From assembly GCA_022842935.1 (NCBI GenBank), contig JALHOP010000007.1, forward strand, positions 265,592 to 329,591: a stretch of DNA of 64,000 nucleotides. The letters are read 5' to 3'. The first letter of the stretch is position 1; each line of letters starts with the position of its first letter. The stretch comes from Myxococcota bacterium (GTDB lineage: Bacteria; Myxococcota; XYA12-FULL-58-9; JALHOP01). Below are positions 30,562 to 41,424 of the stretch, piece after piece. The translations under genes and the position numbers were made by a program. The notes below the pieces were generated by a model. It was not told where the DNA came from. It worked only from the letters and a program-made list of their open reading frames with translations, and made no database searches.

Positions 30562-30585
30562 ACTAGATGTTTGGGGGTGTCGCCC

Positions 30586-31074
30586 ATGAGCTCGATCGGT
30601 TGGTTGATGACGATCCTATTGGCCGCAGGCACGCCGAAAGTCGGCGATATCGCTCCGGATTTTAGCGCCAAGGATGTCGAGGGCCGTGACATCAGCCTCT
30701 CTCAGCTAGCCTCCCAGGGGACCGTGCTGCTCGCCTTCTTCCCCAAGGCCTTCACCCCCGGTTGCACCAAGCAGCTGTCGGCATACGCCACCGAATACGC
30801 CGAGCTACGCGAACGCAACGCCCAGGTCGTGGCCGTCTCGATGGACGATCCGATGACCCAGAAGAGGTTCAAGGAGTCACTCGGCGCGGGCTTCATCTTC
30901 ATCGCCGACCCGCAGGGCAAGATCGTTCGCTTGTTCGATCTGCGCGAGCAAACTCAGTCCAAACGTGCCGCCTTCGTCATCGATCGTGAGCGCCGGGTTC
31001 TGCGCGTCGATCTCGGCGATCACGCGATTGACGGCACGGACAAGACCATCAAATCGTGTGAGACGTCCGGCTAG
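30586..31074 (+). CDS. Exported BCP/PrxQ-type peroxiredoxin
   Basis: 162 residues from ATG 30586; a TTG/GTG a few codons upstream is possible. The first residues [15 protein letters not shown] form a short signal or anchor sequence. The AhpC/TSA fold is shown by [28 protein letters not shown] with peroxidatic Cys60, [28 protein letters not shown] and [16 protein letters not shown]. The usual second Cys five residues later is absent; the only other late Cys is Cys158 near the C-terminus, so it is a 1-Cys or atypical 2-Cys enzyme. It would remove peroxides in the envelope. Confidence 0.88.
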
Positions 31075-34279: not shown

Positions 34280-35608
34280 ATGCGCGTTACGGTCATTGGC
34301 ACTGGGTACGTTGGGCTCGTCACGGGGACGTGCCTTGCCGACATGGGCAACGACGTCGTCTGTCAGGATATCGACCCCGCGAAGATCGAAAAGCTCACGC
34401 GGGGTGAGATCCCCATCTATGAGCCGGGTCTCTCGGAGCTGGTCATGCAGAATCTGCGCGGCAGACGCTTGACCTTCACCACCGACCTCACCGCGGCCTT
34501 GCGTGACACCGAAGTCGTCTTCATCGCCGTGGGCACGCCTCCAGCCGAAGATGGCAGCGCCGATCTCAAGCACGTGCTGGGTTGTGCGCGCGACGTCGCA
34601 GGTGGACTGCAAAGCGCTGCGCTCGTCGTCGTCAAGAGCACGGTCCCCATTGGCACTTGCGACCGCGTACGCGACACGGTGAACGACATCTTGCGCGAGC
34701 GTCGCGCCGGCTTCACGTGCGACGTCGTATCGAACCCCGAGTTCCTCAAGGAAGGCTCGGCGATCGAGGACTTCATGCGCCCCGACCGAATCATCGTCGG
34801 CGCCGCGAGCGAAGACGGTGCGGCGACGATGCGCAGGCTCTACGCCCCATTCGTGCGCAACAAACATCCTCTCATCGTCATGGATGTCCGCTCCAGCGAA
34901 ATGACGAAATACGCTTCGAACGTCATGCTTGCCGCGCGCATCTCGATGATGAACGAGCTCGCGTCCATCTGTGAACGGGTCGGCGCCGACATCATGAGTG
35001 TCCGTGACGGTGTCGGTAGCGACCAGCGCCTCGGTATGTCGTTTCTCTACGCCGGAGTCGGCTACGGCGGATCGTGCTTCCCGAAAGACGTGCAGGCGCT
35101 CGCGCGCATCGCTCGCGACGTGGGGGTCGCCCCGGACGTGTTGGATGCCGTTGAGCGCGTCAACGCGCGGCAGAAGCTCCTCGTCGCCGAGCGTGTGATT
35201 TCACACTTCGGCGGCAATCTCTCGGACAAGCGCATTGCTCTGTGGGGTCTCGCCTTCAAGCCCAAGACGGATGACATGCGCGAAGCGCCCTCGCTCGTCA
35301 TCATCGAAGCGCTGACCAAAGCCGGCGCGAGCGTGCGTGCCTTCGACCCCGAGGCGATGCCGAACGCCGAGAAGCTGCTCGGGCACAACCCGCGCGTCAC
35401 CTTCGCCCCCGACGCATATAGCGCCCTCGAGGGTGCCGACGCCCTTTGCTTGGTCACCGAGTGGGGCATGTTCCGGACCCCAGACTTCGGGCGTATGCGC
35501 GCCTCGATGCGCACGCCCTTCATCGTCGACGGGCGCAACCAATACGAGCCTGGCGAAATGCAGCGCGCTGGGTTTACCTACGTCGGCGTAGGAAGGGCGA
35601 GGTCATGA
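34280..35608 (+). CDS. ugd: UDP-glucose 6-dehydrogenase
   Basis: 442 residues. Motifs: [24 protein letters not shown] (NAD-binding), [79 protein letters not shown] and active-site Cys266 in YGGSCFPKD, followed by [19 protein letters not shown]. It oxidises UDP-glucose to UDP-glucuronate. It is first in an operon with uxs and gmd, each overlapping by 4 bp. AAGGAC 5-10 nt before the ATG is a plausible Shine-Dalgarno. Cytoplasmic. Confidence 0.97.
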
Positions 35609-36534
35609 GTCGCGTCCTGGTTACGGGCGGTGCGGGTTTCATCGGCTCTCACCTGTGTGAGCGGTTGATCGCCGACGGCCACGAGGTCATTTGCCTCGAC
35701 AACTTTCTCACCGGACGCAAGGCGAACCTCGAGAGTATCGCGCGACATCCGCGGTTCGAGCTCGTCCGCCACGACGTAGTCGAACCGCTGCTCCTGGAGG
35801 TCGACGAAATCTACAACCTGGCGTGCCCGGCTTCGCCAAGACACTACCAGGCGAACTCCGTAAAAACGGTCAAGACCAACGTACTCGGCGCCTTGCACGT
35901 ACTCGGCGCCGCCAAGCGGCTGAAGGCGCGCGTGCTTCAAGCGTCGACCAGCGAGGTGTACGGCGACCCGCAAGTGCACCCACAGCCCGAAGACTACTGG
36001 GGTCACGTGAACCCTATCGGCACCCGAGCCTGTTACGACGAAGGTAAGCGGGTCGCCGAGACGCTTTTTTACGACTATCTGCGGCAGCACAAGCTGCAGA
36101 TCCGCGTTGCACGCATCTTCAACACGTATGGACCCCGAATGCTCGAGAACGACGGGCGCGTGGTCAGTAACTTCGTGGTTCAAGCCCTACGCGGCGAGCC
36201 CATTACCATCTACGGCGATGGATCACAGACGCGCTCGTTTTGCTTCGTCGACGACCTCGTGGAGGGTCTCGTCCGCTTGATGAACAGCAACTGCACCGAG
36301 CCCGTGAACCTCGGCAACCCCGCAGAGTACACGATAGCGGACTTGGCTCATAAGATCGTTGCGATGACGAGCAGCAAGTCGCGCATCGATAAACTTCCGC
36401 TTCCCGCGGACGATCCACGCCGCCGGCGGCCGGATATCAGCCGGGCCAAGACGGTGATCGGATGGCAGCCCACCATCGCGCTCGAGCAGGGCCTCGGGAA
36501 GACGATCGCCTACTTTCGCGAGGCCATGAAATGA
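35605..36534 (+). CDS. uxs: UDP-glucuronate decarboxylase (UDP-xylose synthase)
   Basis: 309 residues; the ATG overlaps the ugd stop (ATGA). Extended-SDR motifs: [15 protein letters not shown], the UXS-specific [70 protein letters not shown] with catalytic Tyr144 and Lys148, and the [10 protein letters not shown] motif. Uxs converts UDP-glucuronate, the product of the preceding gene, to UDP-xylose. The chain matches the typical 310-340 residues of bacterial soluble enzymes. Confidence 0.95.
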
Positions 36535-37565
36535 ACGTCGTGAAGAAGCGCGCGCTCATCACCGGCATCACCGGCCAAGACGGTAGCTACCTCGCAGAGC
36601 TACTGCTCGCGAAAGGTTATGACGTTTATGGGCTCATCCGGCGCGCGTCGACCTTCAACACCGCCCGCATCGACCACATCTACGCCGACCCACACGACAA
36701 GCCTCCTCTACGCCTGATCTACGGCGACTTGAGTGACGCGTCGAGCTTGAACCAGGCGCTACGCGAGTCACAACCCGACGAAATCTACAATCTCGGCGCG
36801 CAGTCGCACGTGCGTGTCTCGTTCGACATTCCGGAGTACACGGGTGACGTCACGGGGTTGGGCACGCTGCGCATGCTCGAGGCGGTCCGCGAGACCGGTA
36901 GCAAGGCGCGTTTCTATCAGGCCTCGTCGAGCGAGCTTTACGGCGCCGTGCGCGAGGTGCCGCAACGCGAGACGACCCCGTTCAACCCGCGTAGCCCTTA
37001 TGCAGCCGCTAAAGCGTACGCGTTCTACCTGGTCGCCAACTATCGTGACGCTTACGGTATGCACGCATCGAACGGCATCTTGTTCAACCACGAGAGCGAG
37101 CGTCGCGGCGAAACCTTCGTGTCACGCAAGATCACGCGCGCCGTCGCTCACATCAAATACGGTCTGCAAGACAAGCTCTACCTCGGGAACCTCGACGCCA
37201 AGCGGGACTGGGGGTACGCGCCCGACTACGTGCACGCCATGTGGCTGATGCTGCAGGCCGACACACCCGATGACTACGTGGTCGCCACCGGCGAGATGCA
37301 CACCGTCCGCGAGATGGTCGAGCTGGCTTTCGGCACTGCGCAGCTCGACTGGCAAAAGCACGTCGCCATCGATCCCAAATACTTCAGACCCACCGAGGTC
37401 GAACAGCTCTTGGGCGACGCCACGAAGGCGCGCACGAAGCTTGGGTGGAAGCCGCAGGTCGGCTTCGAGGAGCTGGTCAAGCGCATGGTCGCGCACGATC
37501 TGGAGCAGGTGCGGCGCAAGGTCGAGGGACACCGCGAGCGGGCCAACGAGACGCGCAGCGACTGA
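36531..37565 (+). CDS. gmd: GDP-mannose 4,6-dehydratase
   Basis: 344 residues; the ATG overlaps the uxs stop. [40 protein letters not shown] is diagnostic, as are [19 protein letters not shown], catalytic Tyr157 and Lys161 in [31 protein letters not shown] and [21 protein letters not shown]. It forms GDP-4-keto-6-deoxymannose, which the Fcl-like enzyme encoded 13 kb downstream can convert to GDP-L-fucose; the intermediate can also serve GDP-rhamnose. Confidence 0.96.
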
Positions 37566-37739: not shown

Positions 37740-38675
37740 ATGACGAGTAGCACCGAACGCACCGAACGCATCCGAGCGCGCCTTCGCGTGCTTGCCCCCG
37801 CGGATCTGAAGCTCCGCGGCGCACCACGCTATCAGTGGGCGCGGCGGGCGACCCTCGCGGCGTCCTGGCTGGTCATCATCGTCGTGCCGCTCTCGCACGC
37901 GCGGCTCTTCGAGCGAACGAGCGCGGGCATCTTCGATGCACCGGCCGCGGCCGTGTTGCCGCTACCCGACGTCTTCGCGAGCTCTGCGATTGGTAGCCCG
38001 ACCGCGATCGCGATCTTCGGCTTCGAGCTCGTCGACCCGCTCGCGGCGCTGGGGGTCTGGCTCGGGGGCGGTGGTTCGTGGGCGCTGCTCGAGGTGATGG
38101 CGCTCGCTGCCCTCCTCGTACTGTTCCTCGGGCGATTTTTTTGTGGGTGGCTTTGCCCGTACACACCAATCGTTGCGGCAAGCAACGCGCTACGGGCACT
38201 GCTGGCGCGCTTCGGTTGGCGGCCGCGCGACGTCGGTTTGCCAAAGAGCGCGAGCTTCGTAGCGCTCGCCGTGCTTCTCACCGCGACCCTCGTCAGCGGT
38301 AGCCAGGTCGCGTTGTTGTTCTATCCACCTGCGGTCCTCGGCAGAGAGGTCTGGCGCTTGGTGTATTTCGGAGGTCTGGGCGGCGGCGCGGGATTGCTCA
38401 CGGTGTGCTTCGTCTTCGATACGTTCTACGCACGCGCGGGGACGTGCCGATACCTGTGCCCGGGCGGGGCGCTCTTCACGTTGCTGGGGCGATGGTCGCC
38501 GATTCACATTGTCCGTGACAGCGGACGATGCACCGATTGTGCGCTGTGCGACCTTGTCTGCAACATGCGTCAGTCGCCGATGACTGACGGCGTGGATAGC
38601 GGTTGCGACCGTTGCGCGCGTTGCGTCTCGGTTTGCCCCACGAAAGCGCTGCGTATCGGAAGCGCCAAGCCGTGA
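37740..38675 (+). CDS. NapH-like membrane Fe-S quinol dehydrogenase subunit
   Basis: 311 residues from ATG 37740 (MTSSTERTERIR), which lies just before the first helix; longer frames add sequence that reads as non-coding. Four or so transmembrane segments include ATLAASWLVIIVVPLSHARLF, ALLEVMALAALLVLFLGRFFCGWLCPY and GSQVALLFYPPAVLGREVW. FCGWLCPY and TCRYLCPGGALF are the conserved NapH/FixG-type membrane motifs. The soluble end has two 4Fe-4S motifs, CTDCALCDLVC and CDRCARCVSVCP. It would take electrons from quinol. Its stop overlaps the next gene (GTGA). Confidence 0.88.
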   Translation: MTSSTERTERIRARLRVLAPADLKLRGAPRYQWARRATLAASWLVIIVVPLSHARLFERTSAGIFDAPAAAVLPLPDVFASSAIGSPTAIAIFGFELVDPLAALGVWLGGGGSWALLEVMALAALLVLFLGRFFCGWLCPYTPIVAASNALRALLARFGWRPRDVGLPKSASFVALAVLLTATLVSGSQVALLFYPPAVLGREVWRLVYFGGLGGGAGLLTVCFVFDTFYARAGTCRYLCPGGALFTLLGRWSPIHIVRDSGRCTDCALCDLVCNMRQSPMTDGVDSGCDRCARCVSVCPTKALRIGSAKP

Positions 38676-39259
38676 GCCCGCTCGAGCCCGAAGACAAGGT
38701 GACGCGCCGCGATTGGTTAGGAGTCGCGGCTGCGGCGCTCGCGCTCGTCGCAGCATTCTGGTCGCGGCGTGCGGGAGCGCGCCGCTTGCGACCGCCCGGA
38801 GCGGTGCCGTCGCCGCTCTTCGAGCGTCGTTGTATTCGCTGTTTCCGATGCGCCGAGGCCTGTCCCGTGAAGGCCATCCAGTTCGACTCGAGCCTTGACC
38901 CACGCGGAGGCGACACTCCGTTCATCGTAGCGCGAGAGCAAGCTTGTATCGCGTGCATGGAGTGCACGCAGGTTTGCCCGACCGACGCGTTGCTTCCGAT
39001 CGCGAGCGAGCTCACCGTGGTGGCGCGACAGGTGCGCCTCGGCACTCCCGTGCTCACCAAGGGGAAGTGCCTCGCGTGGACAGGGAAGGGCATCTGCCGA
39101 TTGTGCTACTACGTGTGCCCCCTCCCCGAGAGCGCGGTTCGGCTCGACGGGGCACGCCAGGGCCCGGTGTTCGACCCGACCGCTTGCATCGGCTGCGGTC
39201 TGTGTGAGGAGGCCTGTCCCGAGCCGGCGCGCGCCATCCGCATCGAGCCCATCGCGTGA
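38672..39259 (+). CDS. NapG-like periplasmic ferredoxin subunit (Tat signal, four 4Fe-4S clusters)
   Basis: 195 residues from GTG 38672, overlapping the previous stop. VTRRDWLGVAAAALALVAAFW is a twin-arginine signal, as in NapG. Four cluster motifs are visible: CIRCFRCAEACP, CIACMECTQVCP, CLAWTGKGICRLCYYVCP (variant) and CIGCGLCEEACP. The order and spacing match NapG/MauM ferredoxins, which relay electrons from NapH to a periplasmic molybdoenzyme. Its stop overlaps the NapA-like gene start, so three genes are coupled. Confidence 0.9.
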   Translation: MSPLEPEDKVTRRDWLGVAAAALALVAAFWSRRAGARRLRPPGAVPSPLFERRCIRCFRCAEACPVKAIQFDSSLDPRGGDTPFIVAREQACIACMECTQVCPTDALLPIASELTVVARQVRLGTPVLTKGKCLAWTGKGICRLCYYVCPLPESAVRLDGARQGPVFDPTACIGCGLCEEACPEPARAIRIEPIA

Positions 39260-41424
39260 GTCGCAAGCTATCCCGAAGGGACCTTCTGAAGGTCGCGCAA
39301 GTTGGCGGCCTGGGAGCCGCGGCGGTAACCGCCGGCGTTGCGGCGCGCGATCCGCAGGTGACGCGCAAACGTGCGGTCTGCCGCTTGTGCACCATGCATT
39401 GTGGCACCATCGTCACGCTGCGTGATGGGCGGCTCATTCGGGTCGAGGGCGATCCGCAATCGCAGACGCGCGGCTTCGTCTGTCTCAATGGCCACGCCGT
39501 GCCCGAGATGGTGCGCGCGCCGGGTCGCGCCTCGCGTCCGCTCGTGCGGCGCGGGACAGAGCTTGCGCCCGTCTCGTGGGAGGAGGCGCTCACCTTCACC
39601 GCTGCCCAACTTCAGGCCATCGCCGCCCGCTACGGTCCGCGCGCCCTGTTCGTCCAGACCGGCTGGCCTTTCGTGCGGCATCCGCTCGTCGCGCTGCTGC
39701 AGCGCTTCGTTCATGCCTTCGGCTCGCCGAACCTCGCCACCATCGCGAGCCTCTGCGAAGCCTCGGCGCGCATGGGGCGGGCGCTTACGTGCGGTACCAA
39801 CTATCTGCCCGATCTCGAGAAAGCGAGTACGCTGGTCGTCTGGGGCGCAAACCCAACCCACGCGGCACCACCCTTCGCACATCTGGTGGGCGGATTCGGC
39901 CGCACGGCCGGCAAGAGCTTGGTTGCCATCGACCCGATGCGCAACGAGGTGACGCGCGCGGCCACGCTGCACCTGCAGATCCGACCTGGCACCGATGGTG
40001 CCCTCGCGCTCGCGTTTATCGACTGCTTGCGTCAGCGCGGTTCGGCCGACGCCCGGGTCGCCGCGCAAGACCCCGAGGGGTTCGCGAGTCTCATGCGCCT
40101 CGCCAGCGAATATCCGGCGGGGCGTGCCGCGGAGCTTTGCGGTCTTACGGTCGCCGACATCGAGCGCGCCGTCGACCTGATGCTCGCGGGAAAACCCACG
40201 GCGGTCTGGTCGGGACTTGGTATCGAGCATCACGTGAACGGCGTGCAGACGGTGCGCGCCGTGAGCTGTTTCGAAGCCCTCTTGGGGTCGCTGACCGACG
40301 GGGCAGCGCAGCTCGCACACCGTGCATCCCCACAAGCGGACAACGAGCCCCTGGCGCAGCTCTATCGGCTGGCGACAGCGGAGCCCGTGCCACCCGAGGC
40401 CTCGGACCGACCCGTTGGCCATGATGCCTATCCGCTCTTCGACGTCTACAATCGCCAGGCTCATGGCATGCTGCTGCCGGCCGCGGTGCTCGAGGACGAC
40501 CCGTATCCCGTGCGCGCTCTCATCCTCGTCGGCTGTAACCCGCTGGTGAGCTTCCCGGACGGCGCCCTGATGCGCCGCGTTTTCGACAAGCTCGAGCTCA
40601 TCGTCACCGTCGACCCATTCATGAGCGCGTCCGCACGAGCCTCGCACGTCGTGTTGCCAGCGGCGACGTTCGTCGAGTCCGAGGTCATTCAGAACCCACG
40701 CTCGGCACATGGGCAACGCGCCGAGAAGATAGCGAGCGGCCGCGCAGAATACGAGGGCGACGCGTCCGCGGAAGCGGTCATTGAGCCGCTCGGCGAGGCG
40801 CGCCCCGATTGGCGCATCGTCTTCGACCTGGCCGCGGCTCTCGGGCTTGGCGCCTACTTTCCCTGGCGAAGCCTGCGTGAAGCTTTGCAAGCCCCAACGC
40901 GCCGCTGGCTGCGAGACCCCGAGCGCGAGCTGTACGCAGACAAGGGAGCGCCGACTGTATTTGCGACGCCGTCGGGTCGCATCGAGCTCGCAAGCCCCAC
41001 CATGCTGCGCTTCGGCCACGACCCGCTGCCGAGCTATCAGCCACCTGGCGATGCTCCGAGCGCCGAGCTCCCGCTCATCCTCGTGACCGGTCCGCGCGAG
41101 CGGTCATTCATCAACTCTCAACTCCGTACGGTACCGTCGGTGCGCCGCAAGTTGCCCGAGCCCCTCTTGCGTATCCACCCGCAGACCGCAGCGCCTCTCG
41201 GTATCACAGACGGAGATCTGGTCGAGGTGACGACGCGCGCTGGGCGACTCACCATGAAGGCGCGGCTCGGCGATGACACACGTCCCGACACGGTGATCGC
41301 GCCCCACGGTTGGGAGGAAGCCAACGCCAATGTGCTCGTGCCTGGCGATGTTCGCGACCCGATCTCGGGCTTCCCCGCATTTCGCTATCAGCCGTGTCGG
41401 GTGCGGCGGGTTGCTAGTGCCTGA
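39256..41424 (+). CDS. Tat-exported molybdopterin oxidoreductase (NapA/formate dehydrogenase clade of the DMSO reductase family)
   Basis: 722 residues, start GTG 39256 (GTGA overlap). The Tat signal is SRRDLLK (residues 6-12). The 4Fe-4S site is CRLCTMHC (Cys42, 45, 49) plus Cys76 in GFVCLNGHA. The likely Mo ligand is Cys167 in SLCEASARMG, where NapA has CMASA and formate dehydrogenase has UHASS. Later motifs include VWGANPTHAAPPFAHLV, VAIDPMRNEVTRAA, SGLGIEHHVNGVQTVRA and a C-terminal RTVPSVRRKLPEP. It is ~100 residues shorter than NapA and no NapB/NapC/NapD gene follows, so the substrate is not settled. Confidence 0.88.
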   Translation: MSRKLSRRDLLKVAQVGGLGAAAVTAGVAARDPQVTRKRAVCRLCTMHCGTIVTLRDGRLIRVEGDPQSQTRGFVCLNGHAVPEMVRAPGRASRPLVRRGTELAPVSWEEALTFTAAQLQAIAARYGPRALFVQTGWPFVRHPLVALLQRFVHAFGSPNLATIASLCEASARMGRALTCGTNYLPDLEKASTLVVWGANPTHAAPPFAHLVGGFGRTAGKSLVAIDPMRNEVTRAATLHLQIRPGTDGALALAFIDCLRQRGSADARVAAQDPEGFASLMRLASEYPAGRAAELCGLTVADIERAVDLMLAGKPTAVWSGLGIEHHVNGVQTVRAVSCFEALLGSLTDGAAQLAHRASPQADNEPLAQLYRLATAEPVPPEASDRPVGHDAYPLFDVYNRQAHGMLLPAAVLEDDPYPVRALILVGCNPLVSFPDGALMRRVFDKLELIVTVDPFMSASARASHVVLPAATFVESEVIQNPRSAHGQRAEKIASGRAEYEGDASAEAVIEPLGEARPDWRIVFDLAAALGLGAYFPWRSLREALQAPTRRWLRDPERELYADKGAPTVFATPSGRIELASPTMLRFGHDPLPSYQPPGDAPSAELPLILVTGPRERSFINSQLRTVPSVRRKLPEPLLRIHPQTAAPLGITDGDLVEVTTRAGRLTMKARLGDDTRPDTVIAPHGWEEANANVLVPGDVRDPISGFPAFRYQPCRVRRVASA

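What the first reader, a model, noticed from the sequence alone, without database searches (positions are those of the whole stretch)
37740..41424. NapH-NapG-molybdoenzyme trio without NapB/C/D: unresolved substrate
Seen: three genes with two 4-bp overlaps encode a NapH-like quinol dehydrogenase, a Tat-exported four-cluster ferredoxin and a 722-residue Tat-exported Mo enzyme with Cys as Mo ligand (Cys167). Established: NapGH delivers quinol electrons to NapA. It is shorter than NapA and lacks the c-type heme partner and the NapD chaperone. Inference: NapG donates directly to a novel or variant Mo reductase.
Basis: partly seen in the sequence, partly recalled or inferred. Interest (0 to 1): 0.5.

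Follow-up and report, generated by a model that had tools for sequence, protein, structure and literature searches.

The report
Myxobacterial NapHG-driven periplasmic molybdoenzyme
Many myxobacteria share a three-gene unit in which two membrane-linked iron-sulfur proteins appear to feed electrons to an exported molybdenum enzyme that is not the known periplasmic nitrate reductase and whose substrate is still unknown.

Summary
At 37740-41424 lie three genes with two GTGA overlaps: a NapH-like membrane Fe-S protein, a NapG-like four-cluster ferredoxin and a 722-residue exported Mo/W-bisPGD (MopB) enzyme with Cys167 as metal ligand. The unit recurs: the MopB family is in 27 of 195 Myxococcota genomes, this one included. 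NapG is next to it in 26 of 27 loci (the other starts at a contig edge) and NapH in 24 of 27. The MopB proteins form one clade (100/100); a tree joining them to NapA is rejected (p-AU 0.00076). The Lys and the residue after the Mo-Cys that mark NapA and formate dehydrogenase, and the Asp of acetylene hydratase, are replaced. NapD is in 0 of 12 trio genomes searched. Best reading: NapH oxidises quinol and NapG, standing where DmsB/PsrB stands elsewhere, passes electrons directly to a distinct periplasmic molybdoreductase. Electron route and direction are inferred; the substrate is undetermined. NapGH-like pairs with other reductases are on record (PceA, dopamine dehydroxylase), so this is a new variant of a known modular design.

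The parts
37740..38675 (+). NapH-like membrane Fe-S protein (311 aa), proposed quinol oxidase module
   Evidence: TIGR02163 119.6 bits, below the cut-off of 213; 30% identical to E. coli NapH over 222 columns, two CxxxCP motifs, two four-Cys groups, hydrophobic stretches
38672..39259 (+). NapG-like exported four-cluster ferredoxin (195 aa)
   Evidence: TIGR00397 89.5 bits, below the cut-off of 178.85; 34% identical to E. coli NapG over 191 columns, 16 Cys; two Arg invariant in the 9 aligned NapG rows
39256..41424 (+). MopB (DMSO reductase superfamily) catalytic subunit, 722 aa, SRRDLLK start (Tat-type motif, recalled), [4Fe-4S] Cys 42/45/49/76, metal ligand Cys167
   Evidence: PF04879, PF00384, PF01568 above cut-off and found in 10 of 10 members scanned; Cys 42/45/49/76/167 in 27 of 27; whole-chain matches to MopB structures
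38672..38675 (+). 4-bp overlap napH/napG (GTGA)
   Evidence: sequence
39256..39259 (+). 4-bp overlap napG/mopB (GTGA)
   Evidence: sequence

Best explanation
The three genes encode one periplasmic, quinol-coupled reductase. NapH, in the membrane, oxidises quinol and passes electrons through its [4Fe-4S] clusters to NapG. NapG, an exported four-cluster ferredoxin, stands where the B subunit stands in DMSO- or polysulfide-reductase complexes and hands electrons directly to the [4Fe-4S] cluster of the Tat-exported MopB subunit, which reduces a substrate at a Mo (or W) centre held by Cys167. The catalytic subunit is a distinct MopB subfamily, seen so far only in Myxococcota. Shown: anatomy, conservation of the unit, intact cofactor motifs, separateness from NapA. 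Inferred: quinol oxidation, direct transfer, reductive direction. Substrate undetermined; my guess is a small oxygen-bearing organic compound (S/N-oxide reduction or dehydroxylation) rather than nitrate or formate.
For: NapG adjacent in 26 of 27 loci and NapH in 24 of 27; besides the trio no neighbour cluster occurs in more than 8 of 27 loci. NapG has 16 Cys for four clusters. Family clade 100/100; union with NapA rejected, p-AU 0.00076. W137, R141, H142, E168, R172 and H325 are invariant in 27 of 27 and in none of the 12 reference rows printed. NapD 0 of 12 genomes, with E. coli ringing as control. Own genome has one NapG-like match at E<=1e-12, the trio's. Precedent: a NapGH-like pair is proposed to feed PceA (PMC4585668, passages).
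Against: No direct evidence for NapG-MopB contact; the NapG model failed (pLDDT 42). In the dopamine dehydroxylase cluster the NapG/H-like proteins are predicted to contact separate B and C subunits, not the catalytic one (PMC11887054, passages), so direct donation has no exact precedent there. In two genomes NapH is not next to NapG. The own genome holds a second NapH-like match (80 bits), so NapH need not be exclusive. By structure alone NapA is among the best matches (Z 29.3 against 28.2 for acetylene hydratase). MobA-like matches are all below cut-off and that search rang in 14 of 14 control genomes, so bis-PGD supply is not proven.
Confidence: 0.68

Rival explanations
1. Same complex run the other way: a periplasmic dehydrogenase (formate dehydrogenase-like) that oxidises its substrate and passes electrons through NapG and NapH to quinone.
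For: The best NCBIfam match is formate dehydrogenase alpha (260.7 bits; 10 of 10 members match it); FdhD is in 11 of 12 trio genomes.
Against: Score far below the cut-off of 666. The His after the metal ligand of FDH is Glu in 27 of 27; the FDH [RT]GQ.N pattern is in 0 of 27. FdhD may serve the YdeP-like enzyme of the same genome (L002).
Confidence: 0.1
2. NapGH serves the enzyme only indirectly, through a soluble cytochrome or other carrier encoded elsewhere.
For: In E. coli and Wolinella Nap, cytochromes stand between NapGH and NapA (recalled). NapB and NapC were not searched for here.
Against: No CxxCH in the trio and no cytochrome gene recurring beside it (names by eye).
Confidence: 0.12
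3. A divergent NapA-type nitrate reductase in a cytochrome-free Nap system.
For: NapGH partners; Cys metal ligand; similar length to Desulfovibrio NapA (723 residues); structural match Z 29.3.
Against: 102 bits against a NapA cut-off of 930.55; NapA groups with FDHs, union rejected p-AU 0.00076; the linking Lys is His in 26 and Asn in 1 of 27, Met after the Cys is Glu in 27 of 27; NapD 0 of 12.
Confidence: 0.05
4. An acetylene hydratase-like enzyme doing a non-redox hydration, NapGH only keeping the metal reduced.
For: Acetylene hydratase is the best solved relative by profile (309.5 bits).
Against: The catalytic Asp next to the second cluster Cys (Asp13; loss of activity in the Ala mutant, PMC12096430, passages) is Leu, Thr or Val in 27 of 27.
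Confidence: 0.03

Closest known systems
Nap system (NapA with NapG and NapH)
   Same: NapG and NapH homologues; Tat-exported MopB subunit with Cys ligand
   Different: Catalytic subunit outside the NapA clade; no NapD in 12 of 12 genomes; gene order H-G-A instead of A-G-H in E. coli
NapGH-like quinol dehydrogenase with the reductive dehalogenase PceA, Sulfurospirillum (PMC4585668, passages)
   Same: NapGH-like pair proposed to link quinone pool and a periplasmic non-Nap reductase
   Different: Terminal enzyme is a corrinoid protein, not MopB
Dopamine dehydroxylase Dadh cluster, Eggerthella lenta (PMC11887054, PMC7028382, passages)
   Same: Exported-type MopB enzyme on the acetylene hydratase side, with NapG/NapH-like proteins in the cluster
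   Different: Has its own B and C subunits and a TorD-like chaperone; no Dadh sequence was compared here
Acetylene hydratase (2e7z)
   Same: Best solved relative by sequence profile
   Different: Asp13 position is Leu/Thr/Val; here redox partners are encoded alongside
MopB-NifS fusion proteins of Myxococcota (L007, L008, L009, L071)
   Same: Sister in the 57-row tree at 93/96; next-best matches in the phylum (426 bits and below)
   Different: C-terminal cysteine desulfurase domain (L008); no NapG/NapH within the flanks held for L007-L009; sister place not recovered with 35 rows

Membership tests
NapA (periplasmic nitrate reductase) | groups with characterised NapA | tested here: not met
   AU test of 9 family rows plus 3 NapA rows as one clade: p 0.00076
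NapA (periplasmic nitrate reductase) | curated NapA model cut-off | tested here: not met
   TIGR01706 102 bits, cut-off 930.55
NapA (periplasmic nitrate reductase) | Lys between cluster and cofactor (PMC13223375, passages) | tested here: not met
   His 26, Asn 1 of 27
NapA (periplasmic nitrate reductase) | dedicated chaperone NapD | tested here: not met
   PF03927 in 0 of 12 trio genomes; E. coli control rings
NapA (periplasmic nitrate reductase) | nitrate reduction | not testable with these tools
   needs an assay
NapGH quinol dehydrogenase | four-cluster exported ferredoxin plus membrane protein with two CxxxCP motifs and two cluster motifs | tested here: met
   two CxxxCP motifs seen in all 7 NapH sequences printed
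NapGH quinol dehydrogenase | curated cut-offs of TIGR00397 and TIGR02163 | tested here: not met
   89.5 of 178.85 and 119.6 of 213.05 bits
NapGH quinol dehydrogenase | oxidises quinol | not testable with these tools
   needs biochemistry
Formate dehydrogenase (MopB) | His after the metal ligand; Arg-Gly-Gln loop | tested here: not met
   Glu 27 of 27; pattern 0 of 27
Acetylene hydratase | Asp after the second cluster Cys | tested here: not met
   Leu 21, Thr 5, Val 1 of 27
PhsA/PsrA | curated PhsA cut-off | tested here: not met
   NF012032 208.6 bits, cut-off 694; PsrA/PhsA rows form their own clade
Catechol dehydroxylase | groups with Dadh-type sequences | not tested
   no such sequence was at hand
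MopB superfamily | Fe4S4, molybdopterin and dinucleotide-binding domains | tested here: met

The most novel reading that the evidence does not exclude
A previously undescribed class of quinol-driven periplasmic Mo/W reductases of Myxococcota, in which NapG is the only electron-entry subunit and a Cys-Glu active site acts on a substrate that no known MopB enzyme reduces, perhaps a compound met in predation or secondary metabolism.
Probability: 0.3. Interest if true: 0.62.

Novelty: new variant of a known kind. Interest (0 to 1): 0.42.

Why it matters
It would make NapGH the minimal electron-entry module of a whole molybdoenzyme subfamily rather than a nitrate-respiration accessory, and it puts an uncharacterised, probably quinol-coupled reaction into myxobacteria, including a named Myxococcus strain. 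Reading NapG/NapH genes as nitrate respiration would mislead for these genomes.

Tried and rejected
NapA, formate dehydrogenase and acetylene hydratase identity: rejected on tree, scores and active-site residues. Pattern checks, told in full: [RT]GQ.N is in 0 of 27 family rows but also not in E. coli NapA itself, which reads TGQPS in the printed columns, so it speaks against FDH more than against NapA; a loose pattern for NapA's acidic pair hit 1 of 27 family rows and was not followed up.

Substrate from the neighbourhood: 27 loci were compared, after dropping L037, L038 and L041 as copies of L090, L092 and L091; the next most widespread cluster is in 8 of 27 (tRNA-dihydrouridine synthase-like, by eye). 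The window shares one cluster (30571-31074, with L097 and L099), 7 kb away. My crude gene caller found NapG in only 13 of 27 because of overlapping frames; the BLAST count is the one used.

Substrate funnel: model mean pLDDT 69.9, 164-184 under 50. Structure comparison does not separate the candidates (Z 29.4 FDH, 29.3 NapA, 28.2 acetylene hydratase, 25.7 PsrA). NapG model failed. Promoter and terminator scan: nothing above chance.

Sister group: NifS fusions at 93/96 in 57 rows, unresolved in the 35-row tree, where I kept 9 of 27 family rows and dropped L002, L024, L076 and L027.

'Only Mo-bisPGD enzyme of its genome': rejected, a YdeP-like enzyme is there too. 'Restricted to Myxococcota': not shown. 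Plasmids: 1165 records match, listed identities 31% or less.

In print: searches listed nothing on this unit in myxobacteria; I saw listings of 25 of 129, 10 of 10, 1 of 1, 15 of 477 and 12 of 102 papers.

Full report
What is there. Three same-strand genes at 37740-41424 overlap by GTGA twice. The first is NapH-like (TIGR02163 119.6 bits), the second NapG-like (TIGR00397 89.5 bits), both below curated cut-offs. They are 30% and 34% identical to E. coli NapH and NapG over 222 and 191 columns. NapG has exactly 16 Cys in four groups, a twin-arginine motif and the LRPPGA stretch that E. coli NapG also has. The third gene encodes a 722-residue MopB enzyme above the cut-off of three MopB Pfam families, with an SRRDLLK start, cluster Cys 42/45/49/76 and Cys167 at the metal-ligand position. 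None of the three has CxxCH.

How widespread. A profile of ten members found 27 of 195 Myxococcota genomes with matches over 950 bits, this genome included; eight further genomes match at 392-426 bits with longer, different proteins. Only the five best candidates per genome were scored, so 27 could be a lower bound. By group code 23 of the 27 lie in one family, which I take to include Myxococcus sp. RHSTA-1-4 because a contig length agrees (844384); the other four lie in four families. None of the seven same-order genomes that one search lists has it. NapG is next to the enzyme in 26 of 27 loci; the last starts at a contig edge. NapH is there in 24 of 27, some cut by contig ends. In L062 and L069 other sequence precedes NapG; each of these genomes has a trio-type NapH (49% identical to the window's) near the end of another contig. 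The nine loci are eight metagenome assemblies and one named Myxococcus strain.

What the catalytic subunit is not. The family is one clade at 100/100. NapA rows sit with formate dehydrogenases; family plus NapA as one clade is rejected (p-AU 0.00076, 35 rows). The Lys between cluster and cofactor of NapA and FDH (role: PMC13223375, passages) is His in 26 and Asn in 1, the window's. The residue after the metal ligand is Glu in 27 of 27, where the FDHs shown have His and E. coli NapA Met. The FDH [RT]GQ.N pattern is in 0 of 27. The Asp of acetylene hydratase (PMC12096430, passages) is Leu 21, Thr 5, Val 1. NapD is in 0 of 12 trio genomes; TorD-type proteins are in 3 of 12 and not in the window's genome.

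What it is nearest to. By profile: acetylene hydratase 309.5 bits, the FDH of a CO2 reductase 299.4, other FDHs 275-284, PsrA 277, Desulfovibrio NapA 199. In the 57-row tree it is sister to MopB-NifS fusions (93/96), then next to the acetylene hydratase side (88/93); with 35 rows these joints are unresolved. By fold, FDH, NapA and acetylene hydratase are close together, NapA slightly ahead of acetylene hydratase.

How it likely works. NapG and NapH are the only recurrent companions. The own genome has one NapG-like match at the threshold used but a second NapH-like match (80 bits). The simplest route is quinol, NapH, NapG, MopB cluster, metal, with NapG where DmsB or PsrB stands in other complexes; this is inference. 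In print, a NapGH-like pair is proposed as link to PceA (PMC4585668, passages). Dopamine dehydroxylase clusters carry NapG/NapH-like proteins, but there they are predicted to contact B and C subunits (PMC11887054, passages). Catechol dehydroxylases are reported closest to acetylene hydratase (PMC7028382, passages); I had no such sequence to compare.

Cofactor supply. FdhD is in 11 of 12 genomes. MobA-like matches are in 12 of 12, none over cut-off, and the same search rings in 14 of 14 controls, so it proves little. The genome also has a YdeP-like MopB enzyme (931.8 bits, cut-off 582) that may be FdhD's client.

Active site. W137, R141, H142, E168, R172 and H325 are invariant in 27 of 27 and absent from the 12 reference rows printed; T135, G136, P138, V140, P143, E324, H326, R334, R400, G612-R614 and I619-Q622 are also invariant, though some occur in references. 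This argues for a reaction of its own; the model is too uncertain there to place the residues.

Verdict. Observation confirmed; interpretation partly supported; a conserved new variant of a known modular design with an open substrate.

Noticed in passing
L007, L008, L009, L071: MopB proteins with long C-terminal extensions; in L008 it is a NifS/IscS cysteine desulfurase domain (443 bits). A MopB enzyme fused to a sulfur donor is curious.
   Followed up: partly
window 34280-37565: Sugar-nucleotide genes just upstream on the same strand: nucleotide sugar dehydrogenase, an SDR epimerase/dehydratase and GDP-mannose 4,6-dehydratase.
   Followed up: partly
L002 670-3417: Second MopB enzyme of the window's genome, FdhF/YdeP family, 931.8 bits.
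   Followed up: partly
L114, L115: NapH-like proteins over the TIGR02163 cut-off in G179 and G180, apart from the trio; L114 also has a NapG-like match.
   Followed up: no
G043, G128, G133, G134, G138, G153, G181: MobA-like and FdhD genes lie within about 5 kb of each other in 7 of 12 trio genomes; in the window's genome they are on different contigs.
   Followed up: no
L062 1-500: Repetitive coding-like sequence (about 28-residue repeats) directly before NapG in place of NapH.
   Followed up: no
L077 4010-6370: Rhodococcus opacus plasmid MopB protein with Asp after the second cluster Cys, next to acetylene hydratase in the tree; probably an acetylene hydratase.
   Followed up: partly
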